Positions 48-63,250 of a stretch of 64,000 nucleotides of DNA are shown here, piece after piece. The DNA is from Argentina anserina. Lineage: Eukaryota; Streptophyta; Magnoliopsida; Rosales; Rosaceae. Position 1 is the stretch's first letter. Every line of letters starts with the position of its first letter. The stretch is taken from positions 21,514,001-21,578,000 of the forward strand of contig NC_065877.1 in assembly GCF_933775445.1 (NCBI RefSeq), read 5' to 3'. The notes under the pieces were generated by a model. The model did no database searches. It saw nothing but the letters and a program-made list of their open reading frames with translations, and was not told the DNA's origin. A program made the position numbers and the translations under genes.

Positions 48-3000
48 TCAGAAAGGACCTAAAATGTCTTTCTAGATATGTTTAACACAGATACAGAGCT
101 CAACTATGACAAGAAATGGGTCTATTGTCAAATTCTTGGTATTTATTGCAATTGAAAGCATTTTTATATTTTCCAAAAAAAAATAGCCGTATAAGAACTG
201 TAAAGTAAATAGAAAAGGTAGGATAAAGACTTTAGATATGTAAAGAAAGATGCAATAGACATACCATTCCATTTTATATGAGATACTGGATCGGTCTGGC
301 GTTGAGGCAACAGGGGTGAAACATTAAATTTTTGTCCCACTGGTGCTGTAGTGTGGGGTACAGGTGACAAAGGTGGAGCAATACATTTCCGTGGAACTGG
401 GGAAGCCTTCTGAGATTGTGATGGGAGTGGTGATGGAGCGCTAACTTTTGATGAGAGTGATAGAGCAATCTGAGATCTAGGAGGCAAAGCAGTCCGAGGT
501 TTTTTTGGAAGAGATGAACCTCTCAAGGATTTTGATGGCAGTGGTCGACCAATTGTGTTTAGTGACGGGTGTGAAGAAGCAATTTGGAGATGAGGTGGGC
601 AAGAGTAACCATTCTGAGGTAAGGTTGAGAGTGACGTAGTATTGCCAATAGGTACGCGGGATGGAACAGTCATGGATGGAAGTGGGAGAGATGCACTAGT
701 TTTGGATTGGGGAAGGTGAATGTCTGCCATCTGGGATTGGCGTTGAAGTGACTCATTACTTCTGGGTTTTGTTGGCATATAAGAATTTGTGGGTGGTAAT
801 GAGGGTATACTTGTGGCTTGGGTTTGGATGGAAGTAGCTCTCCAGGATAGGGATGGAAGTGATGAAATGTCTTTGACCTGGGGTGTGAGAGAAGTAGTCT
901 GGGACAGGGATTGGACTAATGGAGTACTTTTAGCATGGAGTGGGAGAGAGGGAGAGGTTTGGGATAGAGATGAGAGTGATCGAGTACTTCTGGCTCGGGG
1001 TGGGAGAGATGAAGCACCCTGGGGAAAAGGTGTAAATGATGGAGCACTATCGGCATGTAGTGGGAGAGAGGGAGCAGAACGGATCAGGGATGAGAAACCT
1101 TTAACTTCGGGTGGAAGAGCAGACCTGGTCTGGGATTGGGGAAGGTTCCTTGTGGTGCTTTTAGCCTCGTGTAGGAGAGATAGAGAAGTACGATTCCGAC
1201 TTGCAAAAGAAGCTTCATGGGATGAAATTTTGAGTGAAGCAACTTCCAGGGATGGAGCTTCTACGGATAGACCAGTGGGAAATTGAGTTCTTCTCGCCTT
1301 ACTGGCTTCAGCATGGGAAGTAGCAGTGAATGTTTCTGCTGCAGCCCTCTTAACAGATGTTCCAACAAAAGTTCCAGAGGATTGAACAGCCCTATTAATT
1401 TTGGTATTTGGAATTTCTTGACCTGAAAATGGACAGTTAGAAAATAGCAAAAAAAAATTTAGACTCGAAAGTTTTATATAGTAATTACCTGTTATCACAG
1501 ATCCTGGAAGGTTTGAAGAAGATAGAACAGCGCCAACAACTTCAGGCTGATAAGGATTACCTGCAACCAGCATTTCCCACCATCACACAAGATTACAAAT
1601 TTCTTGACAGAGTGCCAATCTGTGTCCTAAACTAGAAGACATACCCGCATCAACTCTAGCATAATGATCACACAGTATTTTACATCACCATTTTAAACTG
1701 TTGTGAATTCCTTTGTATATCAATCAGCTATAGAGGAAACTAGGAAAACAACTTATTGTAATAATTTCAATTATGCATCAAGTAAAACATAGCTGCTGAA
1801 TAACTATGTATGGCTAAGATAACCCCCCTACAACCAATTTAGGATTTATACTTTTTACTATAATTTAAAGATGGCCAAACAATAATCTTATTTTCAAAGA
1901 AAAGCATATAAAAGCCTTCATCATATATCAAGTCCAGAAAATATGTTGTTCGCTCTTCTCTCCCAATGAAAAAAAAAAGAACCTAATGCTGAGAAAAGGA
2001 AGTAATTTGTAGTACAAAGCAGGCATTGCTAAAATATTAGAGTTGGAATGACCATACTAGGTAGCTGGCTGAACCTGAATTCTTCTGGAAAAGGACCTCG
2101 TCCAGGACCTTGTGCAGCAACACCCTCATTAACTGTGACGGGCTTCCCTAAAGAGAGTTGCAGAGTGTGTCAGCAGGGAAGCTACAGAAAATGTGAAGTT
2201 TATCAAAATCTACTATAGGACATAAGCATCTAAAAATTGTTGCAACCAAACTCAGAAACAATGGTTTAAAATTCAAACACATTCAATATCTAATACAACA
2301 ATTACTTCATACAAACATGATAAAATACAAGATAGAATAATGTCAGGCATGGCGGTTTACTGATGTTGATAAATATGACTCGGCAAATTTTGTGTATTCA
2401 ATTTGAATAATAATGAGACAAGGTTTTTGTTAACTACATTATTTATTCCCATGTATGATTGATGAAGCTCCTGAAATGTTACCCAATATAAAGAGGGAGT
2501 GCAAGCAATGCCATGCAAAAGGCATAAATTTCAATTACAGTCAATAATATCAGTTCATGGAGAGATGAATCTATTCAATTATTACGTAAGATTTGAGAAA
2601 GAAAAAAACTGTACAATTTTCTCTCATTGCCTATACTTCCTATGATGTTTTCCTAGTTCACACTGATGAGTCTCGCCTCACATGAATGAGCCAACTTTTT
2701 TGTTTTTTCTTCTTTTATAAAAAAGGATCAAAGGGATTCACCACCCTTGTCGTGACTCGAATCCGTGACATGAACCGGCCAACTTGTGTACAGATCTCAT
2801 CTAGATTCCCGCTTCAAAAAAATATATAGTTGGAAGAACTATTGCAAGGTCTTAAGTAGAAGCAATGAAGTGTTTTAATTTTTATTTACACAAATGATGT
2901 ACCACCTAAATGCTTTGAACAAGAAGAGAGATAAATCTCTAATGTGAAAATACTTCTCAGGTTATAAATGAATAGTATTAAATGTAAGTATACAATCAGT

Positions 3001-5353
3001 CATCCAGAAATACAATGAAAGCACTTCAGTACAAAAATACGGTGGCCACCATTTGGCCCAGAACTTCCAAGCATTTTGGCAGGACAAAACAGAGAAAAGG
3101 AAAATAGAGCTTAGGCATCGATTAGGAAATAGACAAAGAAAAGAAGTGTGGAATCAAAAAGAGGGCATGAAACTTACCACTAAAAGTTGAACAAGGTTGC
3201 TGGAACTAGGATAACTCGGTAGCCGGGTGGACAGTTACCGCCTAGCGCCTAGAAAGCGCCTAGGCGAATTATTAAATATTTATTTATTTTTATACATGTA
3301 TTTAATATTATTTATATGATTAAAAATATATAATGAGCTATGAAGCACGGACACGCGGACAAGGGTCCGCCGGACACGCGAACTCAATTTGGACACGGTC
3401 CAGACACGCGAGATTGGACACGCGGACACGCACCAACTCATAATAAAAGTGAAAGTGCTTATGGTGAGAATCGAACTTTGGTCATCCAAAGCACCCAACA
3501 ACTCATCAACCATTCCAACATATTCATTTTTTGTTATATTTATGCACACTTTAATATATATAAGGAGAGAAACTCATGATAAAAATAAAAATGCTTGTGG
3601 TGGGATTCGAACCTTAGTCATCCAAAAGATCCAACAAATCCTCAACCATTCCAACAGATTCAATTTTTATTATATTTATGCACACTTTAATATATATACA
3701 TCTAAATACTTTCATTTAAATTAATTTTTTAATAAATATATATATATATATTAAAATAATTTTAACTGACGTGTCTACCACGTGTCCGTGTCCAAAAAGA
3801 TTCGGACGACATGGTGTCAGAAAACCTAACCAATGTTCCTACAAGCCTATCATGATTATGAATTCACGTAATCACATTCCACCAGATAAAGAGAAACTGT
3901 ATAAAGTTGGGGGCAGGAAATTTGATATATTTTTCACACAAGCCTAACTGTGGTGACCAAATGATTTCATGAAAGACACCAAAAGTGTCTCGCCCAACAA
4001 AAACATCAGGTATGTAACAAAATGAAACTTGTGAACCCTCTGAAACTTCAGTACCTTAAACTTGTTTTTCTAGCATGTCACCGATAATTAACGATGTAGA
4101 AAGTACCAGTCTAGAAGAGAAACTAACATATGCAACTTACATGTTTCTAGAATATATGATCACAAGAGCACAGTAATAGTATACAAACTTACCAAATAAA
4201 TTGTGCAGGGAAGTGTTTCTTGTGCCTGATTCAATATAAGGCTTCGGTGACTGGTCAGACAGTGGTAGAGAAGTATGCATATTAAAACAAGGTGACAACA
4301 ACAACGCATTCACCTTGCTCGATCCAGAATCAGGCAGCCTAGCTAGGGTATTATCAGCAGGTAAAATAGGTACAATTGGGTAGCCCTGGATACCGTTAAA
4401 AGGATCAATATATAAAGAACTTTTATTGCAATTCCCTTCAACTCCACGAGAGACATTCCTGTTACACGACACAAGAAGTTGTTGCTGCTTCTCAATTTGA
4501 TGCATCTGAGCAATAAAAGATGAAGTTAGTCTGGACCTAGATCTACCATCATATATATTAATTTCTTATTATGAAAAGAAACATTACTACTCACATTGTT
4601 CTGAGTACCAGAAAAACTGGTAGCTACATCAGAGAAAAGGTGCAAACTTCTATTGGCATTTTGACTGCGGAATTTGTTCGACTGAGGAAGGACAACCATA
4701 TCAGAAACATAACCAACATTTATATCTGATAGATCATTTGACTTGCACCCAACTTCAAGGCTTAGGCAACTCCCATCAATATCTACACCATCTAATGTGG
4801 GCCATGACATAAGGGTGCTACCTCCATCAATAGTGACGTTATCAATTAACTGAGGCCTGCTTGTATTACTATTTAAATCTCCATCCCGCTGGATACTATT
4901 TAAGGCTGCAGCTGAATCTATAGCAGATACCAAATCCCTATCACCATAAGGCTTTTGAAGATCGCAGACATTGGCCACACTATGAGGAGTCACTGAATAA
5001 CCAAAGTCAGTATTCCCTTCACAACAGAGAAAATCTGAATCTGATATTGGTAAAATACCCTTCCCATATACAGAACTATCGGCAGTCATAGGATTCTGTG
5101 AGTTACCGAATGGAGTGAAATCATTCATCATATTACGACCAACCACTGACATTTGCTTAGTATCAGGGTTAGACGTTACTTCTGTCTCAGGGAGAGGAAA
5201 ACATGGCACTGGCCGATCTGGCCCGGTCCTATCATCAGCTCCAACAGGCGCCCTGAACTTGGCAGCTTCATTCTTTTCAATTTCTTTGAACCATTGTAAT
5301 AGTGAAGGAGATCCTGAGGGATTGTCTTCATGCTTCGACTTATCATTTGCCAT
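48..5353 (-). CDS. Unrecognised multi-exon gene, Ser/Pro-rich protein
   Basis: I do not recognise the family. The splice model, in transcript order, is exons 5353-4595, 4505-4193, 2147-2075, 1655-1645 (11-nt micro-exon), 1560-1489, 1422-265 and 58-48. All junctions are GT-AG and the phases agree, giving 798 codons plus a stop. The start MANDKSKHED lies 15 nt inside the exon after an AG acceptor; a 5'UTR intron runs from 6300 to about 5369. The N-terminal third is Asp/Ser/Asn-rich with no membrane segment or signal peptide. The large exon 1422-265 encodes degenerate Ser-Leu-Pro repeats (units like SLPLHADSAP), so it is probably disordered. The 3.5-kb span between exons 3 and 5 holds a repeat insertion at 3336-3825. 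The last junction is least certain: another frame of the left-edge exon stays open (VLSDDMRRSSDDPF), so the gene may continue past the window. Confidence 0.6.
1645..1655 (-). other. Candidate 11-nt micro-exon
   Basis: The 11 bases AGTTGATGCGG lie between a polypyrimidine-poor AG acceptor (1656-1657) and a GTATGT-type donor at 1644. Without this exon, the exon 2147-2075 (ending in phase 2, after AG) would join the exon starting GTAAT at 1560 and give an immediate TAA stop. With it, the reading becomes EEF-RVDA-GNPYQPE with no stop. The evidence is phase logic only. Confidence 0.5.
3336..3825. mobile_element. Non-autonomous insertion with inverted GGACACG-rich ends
   Basis: Within an intron of the Ser/Pro-rich gene, the left flank carries repeated GGACACGCGGACA-type words (about 3345-3430) and the right flank carries their complement (CGTGTCCGTGTCC, about 3780-3800). 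The arms are imperfect inverted repeats around an AT-rich centre made of a 136-bp tandem duplication. No coding sequence is visible. This fits a small non-autonomous DNA transposon. Exact ends and a target duplication could not be fixed. Confidence 0.4.
3435..3706 (-). repeat. 136-bp tandem duplication with tRNA-like B boxes
   Basis: Two units, 3435-3570 and 3571-3706, align along their whole length with scattered substitutions. Read on the minus strand, each carries a Pol III B-box-like word: GGTTCGAATCCC in one and AGTTCGATTCTC in the other. A TGGTTGAG-type sequence resembling an A box lies upstream of each. This suggests a tandem pair of tRNA-derived SINE heads, but no full tRNA cloverleaf can be drawn. 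Confidence 0.5.
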
Positions 5354-10659: not shown

Positions 10660-12420
10660 TGATATGAGCACTTTGTGCGACGTTCTTAACATGTTTTTAC
10701 CTCAATTTGTACTTTGCTTAGCCCTTATTATTGTATTATTGAGTCATTGAGTCGTAGTAAGAGTCTTGGGCGGTATTGGATGCATTTTTGTGCTTACATG
10801 AGTTAAAAACGCATAATTGGTCTAGAGTCTTAGTTTGAGGTAGGAATCCTTGTAGGACTATGAAACCTAGTTGGATTATGAGTCTTCATCTTTCTACATT
10901 TTGGTCGCATTGGTGATATTTTGAGAGTCATTCTTGCACTAGGATTCCTTGTTAGGTTCCGAAACTAATTATCTCTTACTTATGATTTTATTTTCTTATT
11001 TTCAGATTGGATTTAAGAGATAATAGTATAGCAAAACATGGAGAAGTCATGCACATGGAGTCCTATAATCAACAAGTCATGCAACAATTAAATAGAAGAG
11101 ATAATTAAACAAAAAGAGATGGAGCCAAGTCATGCAACAATTAAATAGAAGATGATCATTAAATGAATAAAACATGGCATGATTTAGGGAATAAAACATG
11201 ACATGATTTAAGGAATAAAACATGGCATGATTTAAGGAATAAAACATGGCATGATTTAGGGAATAAAACATGGCATGATTTAGGAAATAAAGCATGGCAT
11301 TATTATAGGAAGAAAGAAGCAAGTTCAAACCCTCAATCTTTCCTCTATATATACATAGTTTCACCTCTCAAATAATATCACTTCTCCTTGGCAATCAAGA
11401 GCCAAACTTTTACCAAAATATTACATCAAACATCCTTCACCAAAACAACAAGCCATTCTCCCCCATATACAAATTCTATCTCCACCGAAATCACCATTGA
11501 AGACACACCTCCAAGGTTCCTACAACGTGTGATTCTCGCAACATTTCCCTTCATAGGTTTGTTCGTTTTTGATTTTCTACAATACTTTGTCTATGAAGAT
11601 TGTAGTATGATGTTTGTGTGGGATTATTGTTTTGTATTAAGAATCGAAATTTTTAGATTATTTTATTAGATTTTTTTATCTTTGCCGAATTGATGGTTTC
11701 CTATAATTATTGAGTTTGTATTTCTATTGTTGTGTTCTAATTATCTTTCTCATACTTTTAGATAATTTTCAGATATGTGCATATGAATTTAGTGCTTGGA
11801 TGCAGTTCCGAAGATTGTGTTTGAGTGCTAGATTCATCAAACATATTGACACAAATCGAATCATGCCCTAAGTAGGTTCGGTTTGTGTTGATTAAAATGG
11901 TAAAAATTCTGGAAATTTGCATGTGAAACCATTGTAGGTGACGCCATACATGAAATATGTCTCCAATAAAGATTTGGTACTTAAATGTAATCTGGTTTGA
12001 TTTCTACTCTCTAAGTGTTATTGAATTCGATTGCATGTAAATTTAGATTAGGCCCTAAGTCAATCTAAATGTTAGTTGAAATCTTGCATAATTAGATGAT
12101 CCCCTAAGACTCTAATTATTTTGGTGTCTAAAAAGTATGTAATTGATCGAATTAGAATGCATGATAGGTTCGAACTTATAATTATGTGATATACTGATAA
12201 ATTTGATTTAAGTTTGTTAAAGAGAAGTCGATCATGTAAATAGTAATTTAGGATTTATTTTCATTATTAATTAATAATCAATTTCAAACCCCCATTATTT
12301 GTTAACACTAAAAGTTTAGAGTTCCCTTCAATTCCTCGGACTGAACGATCCCTGCTTATTCTATACTAATGATGACATTGTACATGGTTTATTATAAATG
12401 TTTTAATTAACGCTCTATCA
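10660..12420 (+). mobile_element. Solo LTR, family X copy 1
   Basis: A 1.76-kb block starts TGATATGAGCA and ends GCTCTATCA (TG...CA). It is flanked by a perfect 5-bp duplication TATAA (10655-10659 and 12421-12425). Two further copies lie at 51832-53659 (inverted) and 54185-56523. No primer-binding site, polypurine tract or gag-pol adjoins it, so it is a solo LTR left by recombination. It contains a 24-bp tandem array near 11163-11306. I cannot assign the superfamily without an internal region. Confidence 0.8.
11163..11306 (+). repeat. 24-bp tandem array inside solo LTR
   Basis: About six imperfect copies of a 24-bp unit (AATAAAACATGGCATGATTT plus 4 bases) lie head to tail. Because the period is a multiple of three, the minus strand shows a spurious repetitive peptide. 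The other two copies of this LTR family lack the array, so it arose locally. Confidence 0.75.
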
Positions 12421-26230: not shown

Positions 26231-26235
26231 ATCAC
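26231..26235 (+). repeat. Target-site duplication ATCAC (left)
   Basis: ATCAC directly precedes the Cassandra-type LTR. The same five bases directly follow the unrelated 3' LTR at 34267-34271. This pair shows that the two different LTRs bound one insertion. Confidence 0.9.
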
Positions 26236-26499
26236 TGTAATATCCCACATCGGCCAACGGAGAGGGGGTGATGCGTCTTATATGTACATGCCCACCTCTA
26301 TCTAACGCGAGGCCTTTTGGGGGCTCAATGGCTTCGGAGGGTTCGGAGAACTCCGAAGTTAAGCATGCTTGGCTCAGGGCAATCCCAGGATGGGTGACCC
26401 GCTGGGAAGGTACTTCTGAGCTCCCAAAAAACAAAACCGTGAGGGCTATGCCCAAAGCGGACAATATCGTGTTACGGCGGAGCGGTCTGGGTCGTGACA
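26236..26499 (+). repeat. Cassandra-type LTR (5' LTR of the chimera)
   Basis: It starts TGTAATATCCCACATCGGCC, ends GGTCTGGGTCGTGACA and is 264 bp long, within the range of Cassandra TRIM LTRs. The centre carries a 5S rRNA-like block (26344-26411), the hallmark of Cassandra. A TATATG word lies at about 26279. Family assignment comes from the 5S block, the length and the start sequence as I know them. Confidence 0.88.
26344..26411 (+). ncRNA. 5S rRNA-like segment within LTR
   Basis: The segment contains GAACTCCGAAGTTAAGC, then ATGCTTGG (box A region), and GGATGGGTGACCCGCTGGGA (box C region), closely following the plant 5S rRNA gene-internal promoter. The 5' and 3' thirds of a true 5S gene are not conserved. 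In Cassandra this block is known to be transcribed by Pol III; whether this copy is active is unknown. Confidence 0.85.
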
Positions 26500-26501
26500 G
26501 T

Positions 26502-26513
26502 TGGTATCAGAGC
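26502..26513 (+). promoter_or_regulatory. Primer-binding site, initiator Met-tRNA
   Basis: TGGTATCAGAGC, two bases after the 5' LTR, is the standard plant primer-binding site complementary to the 3' end of initiator tRNA-Met. The same site serves Cassandra and many gypsy elements, and occurs in the element at 57994-63787. Confidence 0.93.
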
Positions 26514-26785
26514 CTAAGTGCGTATTTGGCGATTATCAATACCATCCGGGAGCGATGATCCGACTGCAGGCGGGCCCCCATCACATGCTCCTCGGTATTG
26601 GTATGTCGTTGGGTACGCGAGAGTGTTTTAGGAGCCATACCTCACGGTTTGGTCCTCTAAGGAGTATCGTGATGATACTTCGATGATTTATCAGATTTTG
26701 GAATGTCATGTTGATACCTATTGAATCTGTTTAGTTGAATTCGAGATTTCACAAGTATTGACTAAGTATATTGTTTTTGAAGGTG

Positions 26786-29700
26786 ATGAACGGTGACAAG
26801 GGCCGAGGACAGGGCCGAGGACGGGCGAGAGGCCGAGGTCGAGGTAGGACCACAGGCCGAGTCCGCAACGTGGAGAACCTTTATGAGGAGGCTGCTCCAC
26901 AGGTAGAGCAGGTAGGCCGAGGTCGAGGTAGGGCCACAGATCGAGTCCGCAACGTGGAGAACCTCTATGAGGAGGCTGCTCCGCAGGAGGAGCAGGATGA
27001 GCCAGCTCCTGCGGTTAGAGATGACGGTCGAGTGTTGAAGCTGATCAAGGATATTAGTGCACTGTCAGCTCCGACATTTCATGGGGGACTAGACCACATG
27101 GTAGCTGACCATTGGATCGAGGGTATGGAGGCTTATTTTGAGTTGATGGAGTGCACAGAGATTGAGAAGAGAAAGATAGCTACATTCTTTCTCAAGGGTG
27201 ATGCTCTAGATTGGTGGAAGAGCATGAGACAGACTGTGGATGTGTCTACATTCACATGGGGAGATTTCACCACCATATTCCAAGAGAAGTATTTCCCCGC
27301 CTCAGTACAGGAGGACTTAGAGTTGGAGTTTCTGGCATTGGTGCAGGGAGACATGACCATTAGAGAGTATGATGCTCGATTCTCGCAACTGTATCGGTAT
27401 GTCAGGCCTATGGGTGCGACTGCTTTAGCTCAGAAGTATCTACGTGGGCTGAAACAGGAGTACAAGACCATGATATCAGTCCTTTGCCTGACTTCACGGG
27501 AGCAGATATTTGAGAGTGCTATGAGTTTGGAGCAAGCAGAGAAGACTCGAGCAGGTGATGTGGGGAATAGAGATGCGAAGGGGAAAGGCAAGGCAGTCTA
27601 TACAGGCAGCGAGCACTCAGGACCGAAGGATAGGTCATGGAAGAGGCCAAGACCCCACTATCAGGCCCCGACAAGGGCACCACCCTTAGCTATCAGGGCA
27701 GCACCAGTCAGACCATTAGCAGCAGTGAGGTGTTATGGCTGCAATGAGATGGGACATTACGCCTCAGCATGTCCGAAACCGAAGAGAGGAGGGTGCCACC
27801 GGTGCGGGCAGCTGGGGCACATAGCTCGAGATTGTACCCGACCACTTCCGGGTAGACAGGAACGGCCACAGAGACAGCTACCAGCAGGCCAAGCTAGAGT
27901 GTTCGCAGTGGGTCAGCGAGACACAGGAGTGGAAGGTACATTATCACTTTTTGACTACCTTGCTAGAGTGTTGTTTGATACGGGAGCATCGCATTCATTC
28001 ATTGCTAGTTCGGTAGTGGAGATGCTAGGATTGATTCCTACACCTCTCGGGGACGCCTTATGTGTCACTTCACCCCTTGGAGTGTCACTTGAGTTAGAGA
28101 CAATCTGCAAAGCTTGTCCTATATTGATTGGGAGTAGAGAGTTCTCTGCTTCGTTGATTGTGATTCCGGACCACACTTATGATGTGATCTTGGGGATTGA
28201 TTGGTTGAGACCACAGCATGCTGTGATTGATTGTTTTGACATGGTAGTGTCCTTTCATAGACCTGGAGAGCCAGTGTTTCGTTATCGTTGCCTCAAGTCC
28301 GACAACGCCATGAGATCAGGAGTTTTGGCACATGTGGAGTCAGTGGATCAGGAAGTGACTATCACAGACATTGTGGTAGTATCGGAGTTTGGTGAAGTGT
28401 TCCAAGAGATACCGGGGCTACCTCCTCGAAGAGTGGTAGATTTCTGCATTGATGTAGTACCCGGTACAGCACCTGTGTCAAAGGCGCCATATAGAATGGG
28501 GCAGAATGAACTTAAGGAGCTGAAGGTGCAGATCGATGAGCTATTAGACCAAGGGTTCATTAGACCTAGTGTTTCACCTTGGGGAGCACCTGTTTTGTTC
28601 GTAAAAAAGAAAGATGGTTCTCTGCGGTTGTGTGTGGACTACAGAGAGCTGAACAAGGTGACCATCAAGAATAGGTATCCCTTACCTAGGATTGATGACT
28701 TGTTCGATCAGCTCAAAGGTGCTACAGTGTTCTCTAAGATTGATTTGAGATCCGGTTATCATCAACTCAGAGTGAAGGAAGAAGATATATCGAAGACAGC
28801 CTTCAGGACCCGGTATGGACATTATGAGTTTGTCGTCATGCCATTTGGTCTAACGAATGCACCAGCTGTCTTCATGAGTTTGATGAACCAAGTATTTAGT
28901 CCGTACTTGGATGAGTTCGTAGTGGTGTTTGTGGATGATATTCTGATATACTCCAAGACACGAGAAGAACATGTGGTGCACCTGAGAACAGTGTTGCAGA
29001 CTTTGAAGGAGGCGAGACTGTATGCCAAGCTAGAGAAGTGTGAGTTCTGGAAAGAAGAGGTCAAATTCCTTGGTCATGTTGTTTCAAAAGATGGAGTACT
29101 AGTGGACCCGTCAAAGGTAGAGGCAGTAAAGAATTGGAGTCGTCCAAAGAACCCTACAGAGATACGTAGTTTCCTCGGTTTGGCAGGATACTACAGGAGG
29201 TTTATTGAGGGGTTTTCTAGTATTGCATCATCATTGACCAAGTTGACCAAGAAAGATACTCCGTTCGTGTGGACGGATGCGTGTGAGGAAGCATTCAGCA
29301 AACTAAAGACTAGACTGACCACAGCTCCAGTGTTGACGATTCCTTCTAGTGGTGGTGGTTATGTCATTTACAGTGATGCTTCGCTCCAAGGTTTGGGTTG
29401 TGTGTTGATGCAGCATGGAGGAGTTGTCGCTTATGGCTCGAGACAACTGAAGATTCATGAGAGGAATTATCCGACACACGACTTAGAGCTTGCGGCAGTT
29501 GTATTTGCCCTGAAGATTTGGAGACATTACTTGTATGGTGAGAAATTTCAACTCTTTTCAGATCATAAGAGTTTGAAGTACTTGTTCTCACAGAAGGAGC
29601 TGAATATGAGGCAGAGGAGATGGATGGAACTCCTCAAGGACTATGACTTCACATTAGAGTACCACCCGGGGAAGGCAAATGTGGTGGCTGATGCCTTGAG

Positions 29701-31279
29701 CAGAAAACCGAGAGGCGTGGTAGCTTCACTTATGGTCCAGGAATGGTTCATGCTAGAAGCTGCATCAGAGTTTGATTTGGTGCCATCGGGAGGAGAACCA
29801 AGGGTCTTTCTTGGTAGTATCACAGTACAACCCACATTGATCACGAGGATCATACAGGGTCAGGCGCAGGATAGACACTCACGAGCTAAGTTGGCGGATC
29901 TAGTAGTTGATACGCTTGATGAGTGTCCTTCTGAGTGGAGAGTTGGACCCGATGGAGGGTTGAGGTTTGGGGCAAGATTGTGTGTCCCAGGTTGTGATGA
30001 TCTTCGGGAGGAGGTTCTTCGTACGGCACATCGTTCACGCTATACCGTCCATCCAGGGAACACCAAGATGTACAAGGACCTATGCAGACAATTCTGGTGG
30101 AACGGTATGAAGAAAGATGTAGCAGAGTTTGTATCGAAGTGCCTTACATGTCAGCAAGTGAAAGCAGAACATCAACGACCAGCTGGCATGTTGAAACCAC
30201 TGACTATTCCTCTTTGGAAGTGGGAGCAGGTATCTATGGATTTTGTGACCGGGTTGCCTAGATCGAAGAAGGGTCACGATGCCATATGGGTGATTGTCGA
30301 TCGATTGACGAAGTCGGCTCATTTTCTCCCAGTGTCGATGAAGTACTCAGTGGACGTGCTTGGGAAACTATATGTGGATGAGGTAGTAAGACTTCATGGT
30401 GCTCCAGTTTCTATTGTTTCCGATAGAGATGCACGTTTCACTTCGAAGTTCTGGGGTGGTTTGCAGAAGGCGATGGGCACCACCTTGGATATGAGTACAG
30501 CTTTTCACCCTCAGACGGATGGACAGACGGAGAGGGTGAATCAGGTGATGGAAGACATGTTGAGAGCATGTGTGTTGGATTTCAAGGGTAGCTGGGAAGA
30601 TCATTTGAGATTGATTGAGTTTGCCTACAACAACAGCTACCATTCTAGCATTGGCATGGCACCGTATGAGGCACTTTATGGTAGGCCATGTCGATCTCCG
30701 ATCTGTTGGGCCGAAGTTGGTGATGAGGCACTGATGGGCCCAGAGGTGGTTCAGGAAACCACTGAGAAGATCTCAATCATTCGGGATAGAATCCGGACCG
30801 CTCAGAGTAGACAGAAGAGCTATGCAGACCTGAAGAGGAGACATGTGGAGTTTGAGATTGGTGATCATGTGTTCTTGAAAGTTTCACCTATGAGGGGTGT
30901 AGTGAGATTCGGCAAGAAGGGAAAGTTAGCTCCGAGGTACGTTGGACCCTTTGAGATACTTGAGAAGGTGGGCGAACTAGCTTATCGACTAGCCTTGCCT
31001 ACTAGCATGTCGGGTGTACACAACGTCTTCCACATTTCCATGCTGAGGAAGTATATACCAGATGAGTCTCATGTGATCGATCATAGCACCATTGAAGTGA
31101 AGGAAAATGCCACTTTTGTTGTCGAACCGGTTCGTATCCTGGATAGATCCACAAAGAAGCTTCGGAGGAGAGAAGTTGAGCTAGTCAAAGTGCTGTGGAG
31201 TCACCATGATGAGGGTGATGCATCTTGGGAGCTAGAGTCAGACATGATGACCAGATATCCACAGTTGTTTGTTGAGTGA
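26786..31279 (+). CDS. Intact gag-pol polyprotein, chromovirus of Tekay/Del type
   Basis: One uninterrupted frame of 1497 aa from the first ATG (MNGDKGRG). The N-terminus is Gly/Arg-rich with a duplicated block ending [12 protein letters not shown]. It is followed by the gag domain (ALDWWKSM), two CCHC zinc knuckles (about 316-349), aspartic protease DTGAS (about 398), reverse transcriptase with FVDD (about 715), RNase H (YSDAS, about 860), and integrase with an HHCC finger (about 1085-1120) and a D-D-35-E triad at about 1152, 1213 and 1249. The C-terminus (LVKVLWSHH...WELE..M...YPQLF) is the degenerate chromodomain-like tail of the Tekay/Del clade. All catalytic motifs are present, so the protein could be functional and might act in trans. 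Confidence 0.95.
26840..26995 (+). repeat. In-frame tandem duplication in gag N-terminus
   Basis: Two adjacent copies encode GRGRGR(T/A)T(G/D)RVRNVENL then YEEAAPQ(V/E)EQ, with few differences. The duplication keeps the frame and doubles a basic RG-rich segment plus an acidic segment before the gag core. Confidence 0.8.
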
Positions 31280-31306
31280 GCTTGAATTTCGGGACGAAAT
31301 TCCTTT

Positions 31307-31319
31307 AAGGGGAGTAGAT
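31307..31319 (+). promoter_or_regulatory. Polypurine tract
   Basis: AAGGGGAGTAGAT sits directly before the TGTAATAACCC start of the 3' LTR. It is the plus-strand priming site expected next to a gypsy 3' LTR. Confidence 0.85.
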
Positions 31320-31679
31320 TGTAATAACCCAAAATTTCAAACAATTTTAAGTTTGATTTGAATTCTATAAAATTTGGAATTTTAATATGAATGAATGTGA
31401 TTGGTTGCGTTGTTATAAAACGAGCGACGGATACGTTCTCGGAACGTTCAAATTGAAAAACGTTACGTTTCCGCAACGTATATATCGACTTTTATTCCGT
31501 CGATCGGTTGCGAAAACTTTCTTCACGAAAGTTGTAGAGCTCGTCGATACGAGTTCGTGGATATGTGACGCGTTCGAATCGGACGTTGTGTGTAAAAGTT
31601 ATTATTGACGGAAGATAGTTTCCGATTTTAAAAGGGGGTATAAAGGACATTTTGTGAAGTAGGGTTTCTATTTTCAGAA

Positions 31680-31935
31680 ACCCTCTTCTCTCTTCCCTCT
31701 CTCTTCCGCCGCCCCTCTCTTTCTTTTCTCTTTCTTTTCTCTTTCTTTTCTCTCTTTTCTCTTTCTTTTCTCTTTCTTTTCTTTCTTTTCTCTTTCTTTT
31801 CTCTCTTTTCTCTTTCTTTTCTCTTTCTTTTCTCTCTTTTCTCTCTCTTTTCTCTCTTTTCTCTCATTCTCTCTTCACTCTCTCGGTTCTCTCTTTCTCC
31901 CTCTCTTCTTCTCTCTCTCTTTTCCTTCTTTTCCC
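31680..31935 (+). repeat. (CTCTTT)n low-complexity tract in LTR
   Basis: An almost pure pyrimidine run of TTTCTCTTTC-type units just downstream of an AAAGGGGGTATAAAGG promoter-like sequence (about 31630). It probably forms the transcribed leader (R/U5 side) of the LTR. Its antisense frame of Lys, Arg and Glu is an artefact. Confidence 0.8.
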
Positions 31936-32655
31936 CCGAGCTCTCTCTTCCTCACCATCGGCCTCACCACCGATCTCCCCCCTTAGGGAGACGTGGCCCA
32001 CACCGCCGGTCTAGGAGGCGTCGCACCTCCCCGCACAAGCGACCCCGAGGTCGACTCCCTCTCTCTCGCCGCACCGGAGCTCCACCAAGACGTTGACTTT
32101 TCCTCCGCCTTATCCAAGCCATCTCCGGTGGTTTTAAAGCACGATTGAGGTGAGGTTTAGCATGAATAGGTTGTTGTGATGCTTGTTGTACGATTTGTGG
32201 TTGTTTGGTTGCGATTTGGAAGAGTTTGGAGGAGGAGGAGTTACCGCCGCCTAGAGGCGGCGCGTGTGGAGGTGTGGGGTGGCGTAGGGGCTGCCTAGGA
32301 CCGTAGGAAGATAGGGGAGGAGGAGGGGAAGAGGTTAGGCACGGCGGTGGTGCAACACGCGCTGTTGGGAGTGTCGGCGCGTGGGCCCCACGCGCGGCCG
32401 GCCGGAGGTGGCGCGTGTGCCACACGCGCCGCCGTGTGAGGCGGTGTAATTAGTTTTGACTGAAGGGGTATTTTGGTAATTTACTGTGTACGGTAAATGT
32501 AAATGTAATTTTTATTTACTACGGTAAATGTAATTAAATTTTACCCTCGGTAAATGTAAAAATAAATTACTTTCAGTAAATGTAAAAAGTAATTTTGTAA
32601 AAGGGTAATTTAGTAAATTTTATTTACTGAATTTGTATTTACATTTAAATCGTAC

Positions 32656-32792
32656 GTATACGTACAGAAATACGTATTAATATTTATACGTACAGAAATA
32701 CGTATTAATATTTATACGTACAGAAATACGTATATAGTATTTATACGTACAGAAATACGTATATAGTACTTATACGTACAGAAATACGTATT
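32656..32792 (+). repeat. 28-bp tandem array in LTR
   Basis: About five copies of a unit containing CGTACAGAAATACGTA, spaced about 28 bp apart. Each unit has internal dyad symmetry (TACGTA...TACGTA). Confidence 0.8.
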
Positions 32793-34266
32793 AATTGAGT
32801 ATTGCACAGTAACTGTGAATAGTGAACCGTGAACAGTAATTTCGTAAAACCGAAAATTGCTGAACAGTAACCAATTAATACTGTTACGGCATTTAAAGGT
32901 TTACGAAACGATTCTAAATTGTTTTCTTATTCTTTTAAGGTGATCATTAATCGAGGAAAGGAATTATCATCGGGAATTGAGGATTTACGCTCAAGTCAAT
33001 AAGGTGAGTAAAATCTCACTGAATTACGAATCTACCCTCGCGGTGATTCAACATTTTTGCAAGTGTGTTTATTTAATGAATTACAACATGTATATAACTT
33101 AGTGGACTACGTATATATATAGTATAATGGTAATAAATACATATATATATATATATAGTTCATTAAAATTACATACTGTTATTAATTCATTAAAAATAGT
33201 CATTTCGGTGACAGAAAAATTGTGCATGTGTGATTTTAATGGTACGATATGATGTGAGATTATCGTACGTAATTTTTCAGGTGTTTATGAAATATGACAT
33301 GTATATGATATAGTGGACTATGTATATATTGTATAAATGGTAAATAAATACAAATATATATAGTTTGCTATATAATATACTGTTATGATTTTTATTATGA
33401 TATATTGTGAAAGTTTTAAAACGTACAATATGATGAGTGATTATTGTACATGATTTTATCTCGGAAAATGTGAAATATTGTGATTTGTCTTCGGACGTGA
33501 TGTGTGGTACAATATGATGTGAGATTATTGTACATGTGAGGCAAGTCGGAACCTAGCCTTTGGCCGGGCGAAAGTTACGATACAGTTAGAGCTCTAGTCT
33601 GTCTGCCATAGTACTGCATGAGGTAACGGGTGGTTATCTGATCATGGGTACTCAGCTTGTTTTGGATGTTGGGTGGCGGGTGGTTACCCAACATCAGCGG
33701 TATACTAAGTGAGGGGTAACGGATGTGTACCAGCGCTCATTAGTTACCATTTTGTGAAAGTATTTGAGTAACCAGATGGGTTGCTCGTTTTCTCATGATT
33801 TTCATTATACTGTGTTGATGTGGAGTTGTGTCTTTTATGAGACGAGAGTTATTTTAATATTTTACTCATACGAGCTGTAAAGCTTACCGGGTTTGTGTCT
33901 ACAATCCCGGTGCACCAATTCAATGGTGTAGGGGATACTTCCGCAGGTGCTGAGTAGTAGTGATTGAGTGACGACTCCGAAGACTCGAAGTCGATCGCAT
34001 CCAGTCGTGGTGAGGTTCCAGCGTGGATTTTGTGTGAGATTTGGTGTGATTTTATTTGTGAGGTTATTGTGAGGATTATACAATTCCATTTGTTATATGT
34101 TGAATTATCATTTGGGTTTGTAATAATCGGCTTGACTGAGTTATATTTTAAACTCAGATGTGATCCGCTGCGACATTAAAATGATTTCGATTTCATTGAG
34201 ATTATTTTTGTGTTTAACGATTTTAAGATTTTGAGTTTTGAAGCTCGAAATTTTAGGGTCGTTACA

Positions 34267-34271
34267 ATCAC
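34267..34271 (+). repeat. Target-site duplication ATCAC (right)
   Basis: A perfect copy of the five bases at 26231-26235, immediately after the LTR end GTTACA. Confidence 0.9.
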
Positions 34272-51831: not shown

Positions 51832-53659
51832 TGATGGGACGTGAGAGCGTCACACAATTAACCCTGTAAAATGTCATCGTTAGTATAGAATAAGCAGGTA
51901 TCGTTCAGTACGGGAAATTGAAAGGAACTCTAATCTTTTAGTGTTAACAAATAATTGGGGGTTTGATATTGATTATTAATTACAAAAATCAAATTTAAAT
52001 TACTATTTACATGATCGACTTCTCTGTACTAAATTAAACTCAATTCACCAATTCACCACATAATTACAAGTTTGGTTCTATTATGCATTTTAATTTATAT
52101 GATTACATACTTTTAGACACTAATACAATTAGAGCCTTATGGGAACATCTAATCATGCAAAATTTCTATTGACGTTTAGGTTGATTTAGGGCCTCATCTA
52201 AATTGCATGTAATCAAGTTTAACAACACATAGAGTAGAAATCAAACAAGATTACATTTAAGCACTAAATCTTTGTTGGAGACATGTTTCACGTTGCGTCA
52301 CTCACCATGGGGTACAAGTAAATTTTCAGAATTTCCCGCTTTAATTAACACAAACTGAACTTACTTAGGGCATGATTCAATTTGTGTCAATATAGATGAT
52401 GAAGATAACACTCAAATACAATCTTAGGGACTGCATTCAAGTACTAAATTCGTATGCACATATCTAGAGCAAGTAAAAGAAGAGAAACACAACAATAAAA
52501 ATACAAACTTCAATAATTATAAGAATATAGATTCGACATAGTCTCAAAACATATCAAATACAATCTGAAAATTTTAAAACAAATATAAAACTAATACTTC
52601 CACATAAACAACTTACAATATTCATAGACAAAGAATTGTAGATTAACACAAATAAACGAAGTCATAAAGATGAGTTGTGAGGATCACACGTTGTAGGAAC
52701 CTTAGAGGTACGGGTGCAATATGTGAAACTCGGTGGAGATGATGATGGTTTTGGGGTGGATGACTTGGCTGATTTGTGAGGAAAGTTTATGGTGATGTTT
52801 TGTTAGAGTTTCAACTATTCAATGCTAAGAAGAAGTGATAATTTTATTAAAGAATGATGTGCTATTTATAGAAGAGTTTTGGCTCCTTGAATATTATAGC
52901 TTGAATTTTTTCTCTTCAATTTCTTTCACTTATTTTTGTCATTGGTGGGTGCAATCTCGTTTGATAAATTCATTATTTTTCTCATTTTTAGGTGTCTCAT
53001 TCTTTCTCTCTTGCATTATTTTTTTTTTCTATTTATTTTTTTTCTTTTTCTTTCACTTATTTTTGTCATTGGTGAGTGCAATATCTTTTGATCAATCCCT
53101 TCTTCTTCTTTCCCTTTTTAGGTGTTTTATTCTTTCTTTATTTTCCTCATTTGCTTGACTTTTCATCTATTTTTTTCCTTCATTGTAGCTACACAATCTC
53201 ATCTTTTAAAATATGAAAATAATAAAAGAGACAAGAAAAAAGACAAGATAATTCATATAAAAAAAATCAAGTAAATTACTAGAATATGAGAGTAAGATTA
53301 GGAAAGTTACGGAATAAACGTTTTAGTTCAAGTTGGACTTTCCTAAATAGTATGTTTTCTAGTCTAAAAATGACTCTTAATACAAATAGGATTCTCAATT
53401 TATCACAAATGTTATAGAAATGCCGATTAATGAAGACTTATAATTTAACTAGGTTTCCTAGTTACACAAGGAATCCTACTCTAAATATGACTCTCGACAA
53501 TTTCTGTGTTTTTCAACCTGTTTTAGCATCAAAATGCAACCAACGCCACCATAGACTCCTAACTCGACTAAATGACTCAATACTACAACAATAAGAGCTA
53601 AGCAAAGTACAACTGGAGGCAAAAACATGTTAAGAACGTCGTACAAAGTGTTTTAATCA
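51832..53659 (-). mobile_element. Solo LTR, family X copy 2, nested in the CACTA element
   Basis: Inverted copy of the 10660-12420 LTR. On the minus strand it starts TGATTAAAACACTTTGTACG and ends CGCTCTCACGTCCCATCA. The duplication GTCAT is perfect (51827-51831 and 53660-53664). It is 1828 bp and inserted between the captured EH fragment and the right subterminal repeats, so it is younger than the transposon. Confidence 0.88.
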
Positions 53660-57993: not shown

Positions 57994-58530
57994 TGTCACG
58001 AGCTTACTTCTTTCGCTATGCTACTCGTGCGGCCTTAGCAACTCCCTTATGCTAAGTCAGCCTTACTCGCAAACGCCCTGCTAGAACAATTGAAAGGCAA
58101 GAGAATATTTCGAAAGAGAACTTATATTGAAGAAGAGAACTTACAAGTTTACTTGATAGCTTGCTTGCTAGATTGCTTGATTGCTTGATGGAACAAATGA
58201 GAGGGGTGCCTTGCTATTTATAGGCCTCCTCATCCTACTTTACAAGTTCTAGATATTTCTAGGACTATGTACATTGTAGAGAATTCTAGAGAACTCTACT
58301 TAACTCTACACAAGTCTAAGATGATCCTTGAGTGTTCTAGAGAACTCTAGAGTGGTCTAGTTCTACTAGCCTCTCCAAGGTTCTAGAGAAATCCGGAAAT
58401 GTCTCAAGGCTTCTTGAGACTTCCACCATCTTCTAGGATCTTCTATGACCTTCCAAGGAGTTCCGCCATATTCCGGATCCGTCTAGAATGCTCAAGGTAA
58501 AATTTGGCTTAACTTTGGCGGGATGTGACA
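57994..58530 (-). repeat. Chromovirus 3' LTR (left copy)
   Basis: 537 bp, TGTCACATCC...GCTCGTGACA on the minus strand. It is rich in TTCTAGA-type short palindromes and contains CCTATAAATAGC near 58220 as a likely TATA region. Confidence 0.95.
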
Positions 58531-58542
58531 TTCTCCCCCACC
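58531..58542 (-). promoter_or_regulatory. Polypurine tract of the chromovirus
   Basis: GGTGGGGGAGAA on the minus strand directly before the 3' LTR. Confidence 0.85.
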
Positions 58543-58558
58543 AAATCCCGCGATGCCC

Positions 58559-61500
58559 TCATCGCGCTTCATTGTATCGCTGGATCATGTCCTTGAACTG
58601 CCAAAGCGTATCCTCGGACTCCCAGCTTGCTTCCGTATCGGGTAGATCTCTCCACTTGATGAGGTACTCTTTGTAACTTGGTACGCCTCGACGTCGAATG
58701 ACCCGATCTGCGAGTACTTCATCGACTTCCTTGTTGAAGTTGGTGATTACCGCCGTTGGTGCCCGATGCGATATTCCCCTCGATGGGTCTTCCTCGTCCT
58801 CATTGTATGACTTCAACATACTCACGTGGAAGACCGGATGTATCTTTAACTTGGGCGGGAGGTTGAGCTTGTATGAAACTTTGCCGATGCGCTTGATAAC
58901 TTCAAATGGCCCTTCATACCTGCGGATCAAGCCTTTGTGCACCTTCCTAAAGGCCTTGAACTGCTGCGGCAAGAGTTTCACAAGTACAAGGTCGCCTTCC
59001 TTGAACTCGACATGCCTCCTCTTCTTGTCCGCCCACTTCTTCATCCTCTTGGCAGCCTTGTGCAACGCCGCTCGAGCTAACTCCGCTTGCTCATGCCATG
59101 ACTTGGCGAACTTGAATGCGGCTGGACTCTTCCCTTCATAGTGAGTGGCAAGGGATAGAGGGGTAGTAGGCTGCTGTCCCAAAACGATCTCAAAAGGACT
59201 CTTGTTGGTGGCCTCACTTTGCTGCAAGTTGTAGGAAAACTGCGCCACATCTAAAAGCTTGGCCCAATCCTTTTGATTGGCACTCACGTATTGCCGTAAG
59301 TATAGCTCCAAGAGAGCATTGACGCGCTCCATTTGACCGTCGCTTTGTGGATGGAAGCTTGTTGAAAAGTTCAAGTCTGACCCCAACATCTTGAACAGCT
59401 TCGTCCAAAATCTCCCCGTGAAGCGCGGGTCTCTGTCACTGACAATGTTCTTTGGAACTCCCCAAAGTTTGACTACATTGCGTAGGAATAGCCTTGCTGT
59501 CTCCTCCGCAGTGCAGTCGGCTGATGCGGCCATGAAGGTTGCATACTTGCTGAATCTGTCCACCACCACAATGATGCTTCCAAACCCTTCGGACTTCGGC
59601 AGGCAAGTGATGAAGTCCATAGAGACACTCTCCCATGGTCTCTCCGGTATGGGTAAGGGGTCAAGCAAGCCCCCCGGTTGCTGCTGGACTACTTTGTCTT
59701 GTTGGCAAACTAGACATGTCCTCACATACTCTTCGACCCCGTCTCGCATCCTAGGCCAATAATACATGGACTTTAACAAGGCAAGTGTGCGTTTCATACC
59801 TGGGTGGCCGACCCATTTGGAATCGTGGCATTCCTTGGTTAGCTCCCTTCGTAAGCTGCCCCACTTCGGTACGTAGATGCGGTGCCCTCTCGTATAGAGA
59901 AGGTCGTCGTCTAGCCAAAACCTCCGGGTTTTTCCTTCCTTCACTAAGGTGATGAGGCTTTGTGCTTGAGGGTCTACCCTTAGTCCCTCTTTGATCTTGC
60001 TTAGTAATGGGCTAGTGACTTGAGAGATGCTTGCAAACTCCACCTTGCGGCTTAGTGCATCCGCTACCACGTTCGCCTTCCCGGGCTTGTACTCCATGGT
60101 GTAGTCAAATTCCGCCAAGAATTCTTGCCACCTTGCTTGCTTCGGACTTAGCTTCTTTTGAGTTTGGAAGTAGCTTGTTGCTACATTGTCGGTCATGATC
60201 ACGAACTTTGTCCCAAGCAAGTAATGTCTCCACACTCGAAGGCAATGGATGACGGCAGTCATCTCCTTCTCTTGCACGGTGTAGCGTCGCTCCGTGTCAT
60301 TAAGCTTCCGACTCTCATAAGCAATTGGATGCCCCTCTTGCATGAGAACTCCACCGATGGCAAAGTCGGAAGCATCGGTGTGCACTTCGTATGGCTTGGA
60401 GTGATCCGGTAAGCTAAGTACAGGCTCCTCGCATATTGCCTTCTTCAAGTCTTCAAAGGCTTCTTGACACTCCGTTGTCCATTCCCATGCCTTGTTCTTC
60501 TTGAGAAGGTCGGTTAAAGGTGCAGCCCTCGCCGAGTATCCCTTGATAAAGCGGCGGTAATAGTTAACTAGCCCAAGAAAACATCTTAAGTTATGTACCT
60601 TGGTGGGTGGTTCCCATTCTTGGATGGAATGCACCTTGCAATCCTCCATCATAAGCTTGCCGTCCTTGATCTTGTGCCCCAAGAACGACACCTCCGGCTT
60701 CGCGAATGAGCATTTCTCCATCTTGATGTATAGCTGGTTTTCCCGCAAAACCTTAAGCACTTCCCGCAAATGCTGCACATGCTCCCGCATGGTCTTGCTA
60801 TACACCACTATGTCGTCCAAGTAGACGACTACGAACCGATCAAGGTAGGGGTGGAATAACTTGTTCATCAAGGTACAAAATGTCGCCGGTGCATTAGTTA
60901 GACCGAAAGGCATGACCAAAAATTCATAAGATCCATACCTTGTGATGCATGCGGTCTTCGGCTCATCTCCCTCCGCAATGCGCACTTGATAGTACCCCGA
61001 ACGAAGGTCTAACTTTGAGAAGTATCGTGCATGACCCAATTGATCAAAGAGATCGACAATGAGAGGGATAGGGTACTTGTTCTTTACCGTGATCTTGTTG
61101 AGCGCCCTATAGTCGATGCACATGCGTAGAGATCCATCCTTCTTCTTTTGGAATAATACCGGGGCACCGAACGGGGCTTTCGAAGGTCTAATGAATCCCG
61201 CATCTAAAAGCTCCTTCAATTGCCTCCTTAACTCCGCTAACTCTGGCGGCGCCATGCGGTATGCACCCATGGCGGGTGGTTTTGTCCCTGGTTCCAACTC
61301 GATCTCGTGGTCGATCTCTCTCCTTGGGGGTAGTCTCTTGGGCAGCTCCATGGGTGATACATCCTTGAATTCCTCAAGAACTGCAGCTACCTCCTTGGAC
61401 ATGTCATCTTGTGGCCTTGGCTCCTCGTCATCGAACTCACTAAGGATGGCCAAGTAGCTTTCCTCTTCCCTCTTGATGCCTTTCTTGAATTGCAATGCCG

Positions 61501-63205: not shown

Positions 63206-63236
63206 TGTGTCGAGCTAGCCTCTTGATCGAACTTCG

Positions 63237-63248
63237 GCTCTGATACCA
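63237..63248 (-). promoter_or_regulatory. Primer-binding site, Met-tRNA (minus strand)
   Basis: TGGTATCAGAGC on the minus strand, two bases after the 5' LTR end, identical to the site at 26502-26513. Confidence 0.93.
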
Positions 63249-63250
63249 AC

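What the first reader, a model, noticed from the sequence alone, without database searches (positions are those of the whole stretch)
26236..34266. Retrotransposon with a Cassandra 5' LTR and an unrelated gypsy 3' LTR, integrated as one unit
Seen: the 5' LTR (264 bp) carries a 5S rRNA-like block and Cassandra-type ends. The 3' LTR (2947 bp) is a Tekay-like LTR. Both directly flank a normal PBS, gag-pol and PPT, and the perfect TSD ATCAC lies at 26231-26235 and 34267-34271. Known: reverse transcription makes the two LTRs of one copy identical, and Cassandra is a non-autonomous TRIM whose helper has not been established to my knowledge. Inference: Cassandra plus-strand strong-stop DNA (LTR plus PBS) annealed to the PBS complement of gypsy minus-strand cDNA, an intermolecular second strand transfer. 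That gives exactly this order and requires both RNAs in one particle. Alternatives are ectopic gene conversion of the 5' LTR at the short shared tips, or an assembly artefact.
Basis: partly seen in the sequence, partly recalled or inferred. Interest (0 to 1): 0.92.

Follow-up and report, generated by a model that had tools for sequence, protein, structure and literature searches.

The report
Cassandra–gypsy hybrid retrotransposons, formed repeatedly
A tiny gene-less plant retrotransposon (Cassandra) and a large gypsy retrotransposon have repeatedly swapped ends, most likely while being copied, which points to the long-unknown partner that makes Cassandra move.

Summary
A 264-bp Cassandra LTR (5S-rRNA-like block), a PBS, an open gag-pol frame, a PPT and a 2947-bp gypsy LTR lie between perfect ATCAC target-site duplications. 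It is neither a one-off nor an assembly slip. Searches of the same genome (G000) found 12 more chimeric loci, in four arrangements: Cass–gypsy; gypsy–Cass; gypsy–Cass–gypsy; Cass–gypsy–Cass. All 10 loci with both ends readable have perfect 5-bp TSDs. The 16 family switches found lie in the 26-bp LTR-tip/PBS tract; searches of the PPT–LTR junction, nearly as homologous, found none. Of 46 Cassandra-LTR/PBS junctions found, 37 are native, 9 lead into this gypsy family and none elsewhere. Cassandra/gypsy end-to-end joins mostly carry the extra dinucleotides of unprocessed cDNA ends. One trimer was integrated whole, TSD CTTGG. Best reading: recurrent intermolecular second-strand (PBS) transfer between Cassandra and a Tekay-like chromovirus, making that family the leading candidate for Cassandra's unknown autonomous partner. 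Co-packaging is inferred, not shown.

The parts
26231..26235 (.). target-site duplication ATCAC, left
26236..26499 (+). Cassandra LTR serving as 5' LTR (264 bp, from the U3 tip to the U5 tip)
   Evidence: 80-97% matches to LTRs of native Cassandra elements elsewhere in the genome
26316..26429 (+). 5S rRNA-like block inside the LTR
   Evidence: RF00001, model 1-120, E 0.0072, 24.2 bits (gathering 38)
26500..26501 (+). LTR-PBS spacer GT, gypsy-type (native Cassandra has T in the first position at 36 of 37 junctions)
26502..26514 (+). primer-binding site TGGTATCAGAGCC (initiator-Met tRNA type; tRNA identity recalled)
26515..26770 (+). gypsy leader
   Evidence: 98.6% to normal copy L017 (26500-26790)
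26771..31279 (+). gag-pol open frame, 1502 aa, no stop
31307..31319 (+). polypurine tract plus AT before the LTR
31320..34266 (+). gypsy 3' LTR (2947 bp)
34267..34271 (.). target-site duplication ATCAC, right

Best explanation
The element is the integrated product of an intermolecular second-strand transfer. Cassandra plus-strand strong-stop DNA (complete LTR plus PBS) annealed through the PBS to the minus-strand cDNA of a Tekay-like chromovirus. Extension of both strands gave Cassandra LTR - PBS - gypsy body - gypsy LTR, which the gypsy integrase inserted with a 5-bp TSD. The reciprocal transfer gives gypsy LTR - PBS - Cassandra internal - Cassandra LTR. If the plus strand also copies the PBS at the far end, it can jump again and build three-LTR composites. 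Shown: structures, TSDs, the position of the switches found, no PPT-side switch found, recurrence. Inferred: the RT intermediate, the same particle, and that this family's enzymes mobilise Cassandra.
For: 13 chimeric loci in four arrangements. TSDs perfect at 10 of 10 with both ends readable; the other 3 (L016, L032, L034) are truncated or not resolved. The 16 switches found lie in the 26-bp tip/PBS tract; 0 hybrids among 48 and 43 PPT-LTR hits, although homology there is 25 bp with 3 mismatches (window copy) against 26 bp with 2 at the PBS. The foreign 5' LTR reaches its U3 tip at all 10 readable loci, and only PPT-primed strong-stop DNA carries U3-R-U5-PBS (established retroviral scheme). 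Independence: bodies of two kinds (full and internally deleted), gypsy LTRs only 71-96% alike, different sites. Census blind to the partner: 46 Cassandra-LTR/PBS junctions = 37 native + 9 this gypsy + 0 other. The two families share the LTR tips (11 nt at each end, one mismatch each), PBS and PPT. PMC5651808 (abstract and passages) states that intermolecular second-strand transfer leaves a U5/gag breakpoint.
Against: Spacer of donor type at only 6 of 16 junctions; 8 of 16 breakpoints fall between the LTR-tip base and the spacer and 2 lie 5' of it (one of these, L033, may be a gypsy variant), where the simplest model predicts the donor spacer. Junction patterns can only find switches in this tract; switches inside bodies or LTRs were not searched for, apart from the PPT junction and the similarity search. 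[quoted passage not shown] No packaging-like similarity outside tips, PBS and PPT. No reads or expression data. Outer LTR identity in L009 (3027/3027 aligned bases, 72 gap columns) and L011 (2 of 2879 differ) would also fit replication of composites.
Confidence: 0.76

Rival explanations
1. Recombination between finished extrachromosomal cDNAs (single-strand annealing or microhomology end joining at the LTR-tip/PBS tract) in the nucleus, then integration as one unit. Needs both cDNAs in one nucleus, not one particle.
For: Breakpoints scatter through the 26-bp tract rather than stopping at the PBS edge. End-to-end joins and the trimer show that cDNAs of the two families do get ligated before integration.
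Against: No PPT-side join with comparable homology was found (0 against 16). Needs resection exactly to this tract next to a complete LTR each time.
Confidence: 0.14
2. Ectopic gene conversion of the 5' LTR in the chromosome, through the shared LTR tips and the PBS tract.
For: Short shared tips exist at both LTR ends; conversion would keep the TSD.
Against: Should also convert 3' LTRs (none found); does not give three-LTR composites L009, L011, L015; tracts of only about 11 and 26 bp would have to swap 2.9 kb for 264 bp at several sites.
Confidence: 0.05
3. A single ancestral chimera that has since amplified as its own family.
For: Nine Cass-to-gypsy junctions share the same leader start; outer LTRs of L009 and L011 are nearly identical, so composites with two gypsy ends could replicate.
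Against: Cass-gypsy copies have unrelated R regions at their two ends, so normal first-strand transfer should fail (inference); full and deleted bodies, LTRs down to 71% identity, both spacer types, and reciprocal products all occur.
Confidence: 0.04
4. Assembly artefact.
For: No reads were available.
Against: 13 loci on five chromosome-size contigs (C2, C4, C5, C6, C7), perfect TSDs at 10 of 10 readable.
Confidence: 0.01

Closest known systems
Cassandra TRIM (Kalendar 2008 recalled; Kalendar 2020 PMC7215508, passages)
   Same: LTR of about 264 bp with 5S-like block, Met-type PBS, about 74-bp internal region, PPT; LTR-sharing arrays are present here too
   Different: Here the LTR is joined to a gypsy body with gag-pol. 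PMC7215508 calls the autonomous partners unknown; PMC10886601 (passages) says there is no indication of the family responsible.
Complex LTR elements by template switching (Sabot & Schulman 2007, PMC1950507, abstract and Results section)
   Same: Three-LTR units integrated once with TSDs; co-packaging of two RNAs proposed
   Different: Theirs join related elements through R-R switching; here unrelated families join at the PBS, also as two-LTR products whose LTRs are unrelated
Intermolecular second-strand transfer in HIV-1 (PMC5651808, abstract and passages)
   Different: There between variants of one virus, the transfer being generally intramolecular; here between a 0.6-kb TRIM and an approximately 11-kb chromovirus
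Tandem LTR retrotransposons in plants (PMC11899658, passages)
   Same: LTRs interleaved with internal regions; Tekay elements enriched in rice tandems
   Different: Passages seen: tandems built from highly similar repeats, mechanism left open; no Cassandra-gypsy hybrid in the passages
TRIM-related larger elements (Gao 2016, PMC4717578, passages)
   Same: Search for autonomous partners of TRIMs
   Different: Based on sequence similarity; 11 of 289 TRIM subfamilies had larger related elements

Membership tests
Cassandra TRIM (the 5' LTR) | 5S rRNA-derived block in the LTR | tested here: met
   RF00001 full-length, E 0.0072, but 24.2 bits is below the gathering score of 38; at E<=0.01 on a longer stretch listed nothing
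Cassandra TRIM (the 5' LTR) | LTR matches short two-LTR elements with a tiny non-coding internal region | tested here: met
   native copies LTR-74 bp-LTR, 80-97% to the window LTR
Cassandra TRIM (whole element) | no coding capacity, both LTRs Cassandra | tested here: not met
   gag-pol present, 3' LTR is gypsy
Ty3/gypsy chromovirus (the body) | gag-PR-RT-RH-INT order | tested here: met
   Retrotrans_gag, RVP_2, RVT_1, RNase H, Integrase_H2C2, SH3_Tf2-1 in this order
Ty3/gypsy chromovirus (the body) | C-terminal chromodomain | tested here: inconclusive
   Chromo E 8.4e-4, 19.7 bits, below the cut-off of 25.1
Tekay clade | RT/INT phylogeny with Tekay references | not tested
Normal LTR retrotransposon insertion | two identical LTRs | tested here: not met
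Intermolecular second-strand transfer product | switch at the PBS tract, complete foreign LTR, single TSD | tested here: met
Intermolecular second-strand transfer product | donor spacer kept at the PBS edge | tested here: inconclusive
   donor spacer at 6 of 16 junctions; not at the window's own junction
Trans-mobilisation pair | both RNAs in one virus-like particle | not testable with these tools
   needs particle RNA

The most novel reading that the evidence does not exclude
The Tekay-like chromovirus of this genome is Cassandra's autonomous partner: its particles package Cassandra RNA, its RT and integrase copy and insert it, and serial PBS-mediated plus-strand jumps among cDNAs in one particle generate Cassandra-gypsy hybrids, three-LTR composites and possibly the tandem LTR-sharing arrays typical of TRIMs.
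Probability: 0.55. Interest if true: 0.92.

Novelty: new variant of a known kind. Interest (0 to 1): 0.86.

Why it matters
Cassandra was found in all vascular plants that Kalendar and colleagues investigated, yet the element that moves it is unknown (PMC7215508 and PMC10886601, passages). These chimeras are physical traces of Cassandra and one gypsy family being copied within reach of each other, so the partner question becomes testable by looking for the same junctions in other plants. They also suggest an RT-level explanation for LTR-sharing arrays and are natural genomic evidence for intermolecular second-strand transfer between unrelated elements.

Tried and rejected
Rejected: assembly artefact, gene conversion, one amplified ancestor (see rivals). 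The assumption that the spacer would always be donor-type failed (6 of 16). A search for packaging-like similarity between Cassandra R-U5 or internal core and gypsy leader or LTR tail gave nothing above shuffles: 297, 75, 173 and 184 of 300 shuffles scored as high. The end-join patterns contained the predicted 4 bases with up to 3 mismatches allowed, so joins with other spacer lengths are missed and the exact-match share is biased upwards; they also looked for this gypsy family only, so they say nothing on partner specificity. At L052, L053 and L054 the gypsy side of the join rests on about 40 or fewer letters of LTR start. Far ends of the end-joined units other than the trimer were not read, so their outer TSDs are untested. 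Of the 48 PPT-side hits, the five nearest to a gypsy-type PPT (L036-L040) were checked by BLAST and are native Cassandra; the others were judged by their Cassandra-type letters. Searches left 3 junctions into Cassandra internal sequence unassigned (C6:17973912, C7:6229580, C2:17920747). RT piece against solved structures: best matches are LTR-element and Ty3 RT, nothing further made of it. Cassandra-gypsy chimeras in other species were not searched. Host species not identified; seven contigs of 24-37 Mb in a 237-Mb assembly recall diploid strawberry, but this was not tested. Papers PMC7750724 (Maiwald 2021), PMC4079214 (Yin 2014) and PMC6894440 (Drost & Sanchez 2019) are not held, so a report of such chimeras there is not excluded; the searches that listed none were 40 of 48 listed; 15 of 979 listed; titles and starts of abstracts.
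Full report
WHAT IS THERE. The window holds a unit flanked by ATCAC on both sides (26231-26235 and 34267-34271). Its 5' LTR (26236-26499) is Cassandra: it matches LTRs of native Cassandra elements in the same genome (80-97%) and holds a full-length, sub-threshold match to the 5S rRNA model (RF00001, E 0.0072, 24.2 bits against a gathering score of 38; a wider scan at E<=0.01 listed nothing). Then come spacer GT, PBS TGGTATCAGAGCC, a gypsy leader, an open frame of 1502 aa with gag, protease, RT, RNase H, integrase zinc-binding and SH3 domains, weak chromodomain and integrase-core matches below cut-off, a PPT and a 2947-bp gypsy LTR (31320-34266). A normal copy of the same gypsy with two near-identical LTRs (2968 of 2969 aligned bases) sits at C6:34994402-35005161; its leader is 98.6%, its body 96.7-98.3% and its LTR 87% identical to the window's.

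IT RECURS. Searching the window's own genome with the Cassandra LTR plus leader start returned eight further places where a Cassandra LTR runs into the gypsy leader (72 matches, 40 of 949 first-look candidates scored). A pattern search found nine such junctions in all, the window's included, besides two hits whose LTR letters are gypsy. The reverse junction, gypsy LTR into Cassandra internal sequence, was found seven times. Mapping the pieces gives 13 chimeric loci. Class A, Cass LTR-gypsy body-gypsy LTR: window, L010, L012, L013, L014, and L016 (Cassandra LTR 5' truncated). Class B, gypsy LTR-Cass internal-Cass LTR: L033, L035, L032 (only 54 bp of gypsy LTR) and L034 (gypsy LTR diverged, its start not resolved). 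Class C, gypsy LTR-Cass internal-Cass LTR-gypsy body-gypsy LTR: L009, L011. Class D, Cass LTR-gypsy body-gypsy LTR-Cass internal-Cass LTR: L015.

EACH READABLE ONE IS ONE INTEGRATION. All 10 loci with both ends readable have perfect 5-bp TSDs: ATCAC, TTATC, ATATA, CATAG, ATCAA (class A); TATGA, ATATA (B); CCTAT, TCTCA (C); ATCCG (D). A 5-bp match has a chance of about 0.0015 from local composition.

WHERE THE SWITCH LIES. The 16 switches found lie in a 26-bp tract (GGGTCGT[G/T]ACA[T/G]TTGGTATCAGAGCC) that the families share with two differences. could find switches only there, a similarity search, was not so bound and gave the same nine Cass-to-gypsy loci. Native Cassandra has T in the first spacer position at 36 of 37 junctions and A at one; the gypsy has G, since 40 of 40 scored leader matches, the window included, start at that base. 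By these two markers, 6 of 16 breakpoints lie in the PBS, 8 between the LTR-tip base and the spacer (the window's among them), and 2 further 5' (one, L033, could be a gypsy variant with G at the tip). The PPT-LTR junction is also shared (25 bp, three differences in the window copy), yet no hybrid was found among 48 and 43 hits there. Of the 48, the five nearest to a gypsy-type PPT are native Cassandra by BLAST (L036-L040) and the others have Cassandra-type letters; of the 43, one reads like a gypsy tip, and it is L035's own Cassandra LTR.

PARTNER. A search for the Cassandra LTR end plus PBS, blind to what follows, found 46 junctions: 37 run into Cassandra internal sequence, 9 into this gypsy, 0 into anything else. 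Of 48 junctions into Cassandra internal sequence, 37 come from those Cassandra LTRs, 7 from this gypsy, 1 is a diverged Cassandra (L037) and 3 were not assigned. Another intact chromovirus with the same spacer and PBS is in this very window (57994-63787) and is not among the partners found.

END-TO-END JOINS AND THE TRIMER. Two places read gypsy ...TTACA-GTAT-TGTAATATC... Cassandra; seven read Cassandra ...GTGACA-NNNN-TGTAATA... gypsy with TTAT (4), TTAA (2) or TAAA (1). GT or TT is the spacer 3' of each LTR, and AT precedes the gypsy LTR in 10 of 11 copies looked at, AA in L009. So 6 of 9 are exactly what ligation of unprocessed cDNA ends gives, as at 2-LTR circle junctions (recalled); the two TTAA fit if those gypsy copies had AA; TAAA does not fit exactly. 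The patterns contained the predicted letters with up to 3 mismatches, which biases this count, and other join lengths occur (0 bp in L044; Cassandra-TT-Cassandra in L031). At L052 and L053 a single Cassandra LTR, not a whole element, is joined. On C3:15115113-15125409 (minus strand) a complete Cassandra, a 9.1-kb internally deleted gypsy and a second complete Cassandra stand end to end, joined by 0 bp and by GTAT, inside one TSD CTTGG. Its four Cassandra LTRs run a-b ... b-a: the outer two are identical (262/262), the inner two agree in all 29 variable columns shown, and a and b differ at 7 sites, while the gypsy LTRs differ at 0 of 786 and 1 of 439 positions compared. The Cassandra LTR differences therefore most likely predate integration, and the pair looks like the two reciprocal products of a second-strand exchange between two Cassandra templates (inference).

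MECHANISM. Only PPT-primed plus-strand strong-stop DNA carries a complete U3-R-U5-PBS and moves to a PBS complement (established retroviral scheme; PMC5651808, passages, names the resulting U5/gag breakpoint). Transfer to the other family's minus strand gives classes A and B; a second transfer from a plus strand that has copied the far PBS gives C and D. Recipient-type spacers at 10 of 16 junctions require that the recipient minus strand reached past the PBS, with later repair of the heteroduplex, or that some exchanges took place between finished cDNAs. This is the main open point. Class A copies have unrelated R regions and should be dead ends (inference), so each is likely a separate event; this fits two body types and gypsy LTR identities of 71-96%. 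Nearly identical outer LTRs in L009 and L011 leave open that composites with two gypsy ends replicate.

LITERATURE. Kalendar 2020 (PMC7215508, passages) speaks of unknown autonomous partners, and Kojima 2024 (PMC10886601, passages) of no indication of the responsible family. Sabot & Schulman 2007 (PMC1950507, abstract and Results section) explain TSD-flanked three-LTR elements by template switching between R regions of related elements. Nine paper searches listed no Cassandra-gypsy LTR hybrid in titles or starts of abstracts (two were capped lists); three relevant papers are not held.

LIMITS. One genome, no reads, no relatives, no expression. The clade name Tekay is recalled. Co-packaging is inferred. 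Similarity searches score only the best candidates and patterns allow 2-3 mismatches, so counts are lower bounds.

Noticed in passing
L044, L055, L043 (G000 C3:15115113-15125409, minus strand): Cassandra-gypsy-Cassandra end-to-end trimer integrated as one unit (TSD CTTGG) with Cassandra LTR haplotypes a-b...b-a.
   Followed up: yes
L028, L043, L029, L046, L047, L049, L052, L053, L054: Cassandra elements (single LTRs at L052 and L053, an array at L029) joined end to end to gypsy LTRs through 4 bp equal or close to the unprocessed cDNA ends (GTAT, TTAT, TTAA, TAAA).
   Followed up: partly
L009, L010, L011, L014, L055: Internally deleted, probably non-autonomous version of the gypsy family (body segments around 400-1200 and 1900-3800 of the window body without match), also a partner of Cassandra.
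   Followed up: partly
window 57994-63787 (minus strand): Chromovirus with chromodomain, LTRs of 537 bp 99.6% identical, same GT spacer and PBS as the gypsy body, 1548-aa open frame; not found among Cassandra's partners.
   Followed up: partly
L029 (C5:1941379-1943310): Cassandra array with six LTRs sharing internal regions, joined by TAAA to a gypsy LTR.
   Followed up: no
window 26830-26996: 84-bp in-frame tandem duplication in the N-terminal part of gag.
   Followed up: no
window 32657-32795: 29-bp tandem repeat (about 5 copies, TATACGTACAGAAATACGTAT...) inside the gypsy LTR.
   Followed up: no
window 164-1573 (minus strand): Open frame of 469 aa without any Pfam match.
   Followed up: no
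window 11376-12393 and 51856-52840: Diverged inverted repeat pair, 77% over 1025 bp, about 40 kb apart.
   Followed up: no
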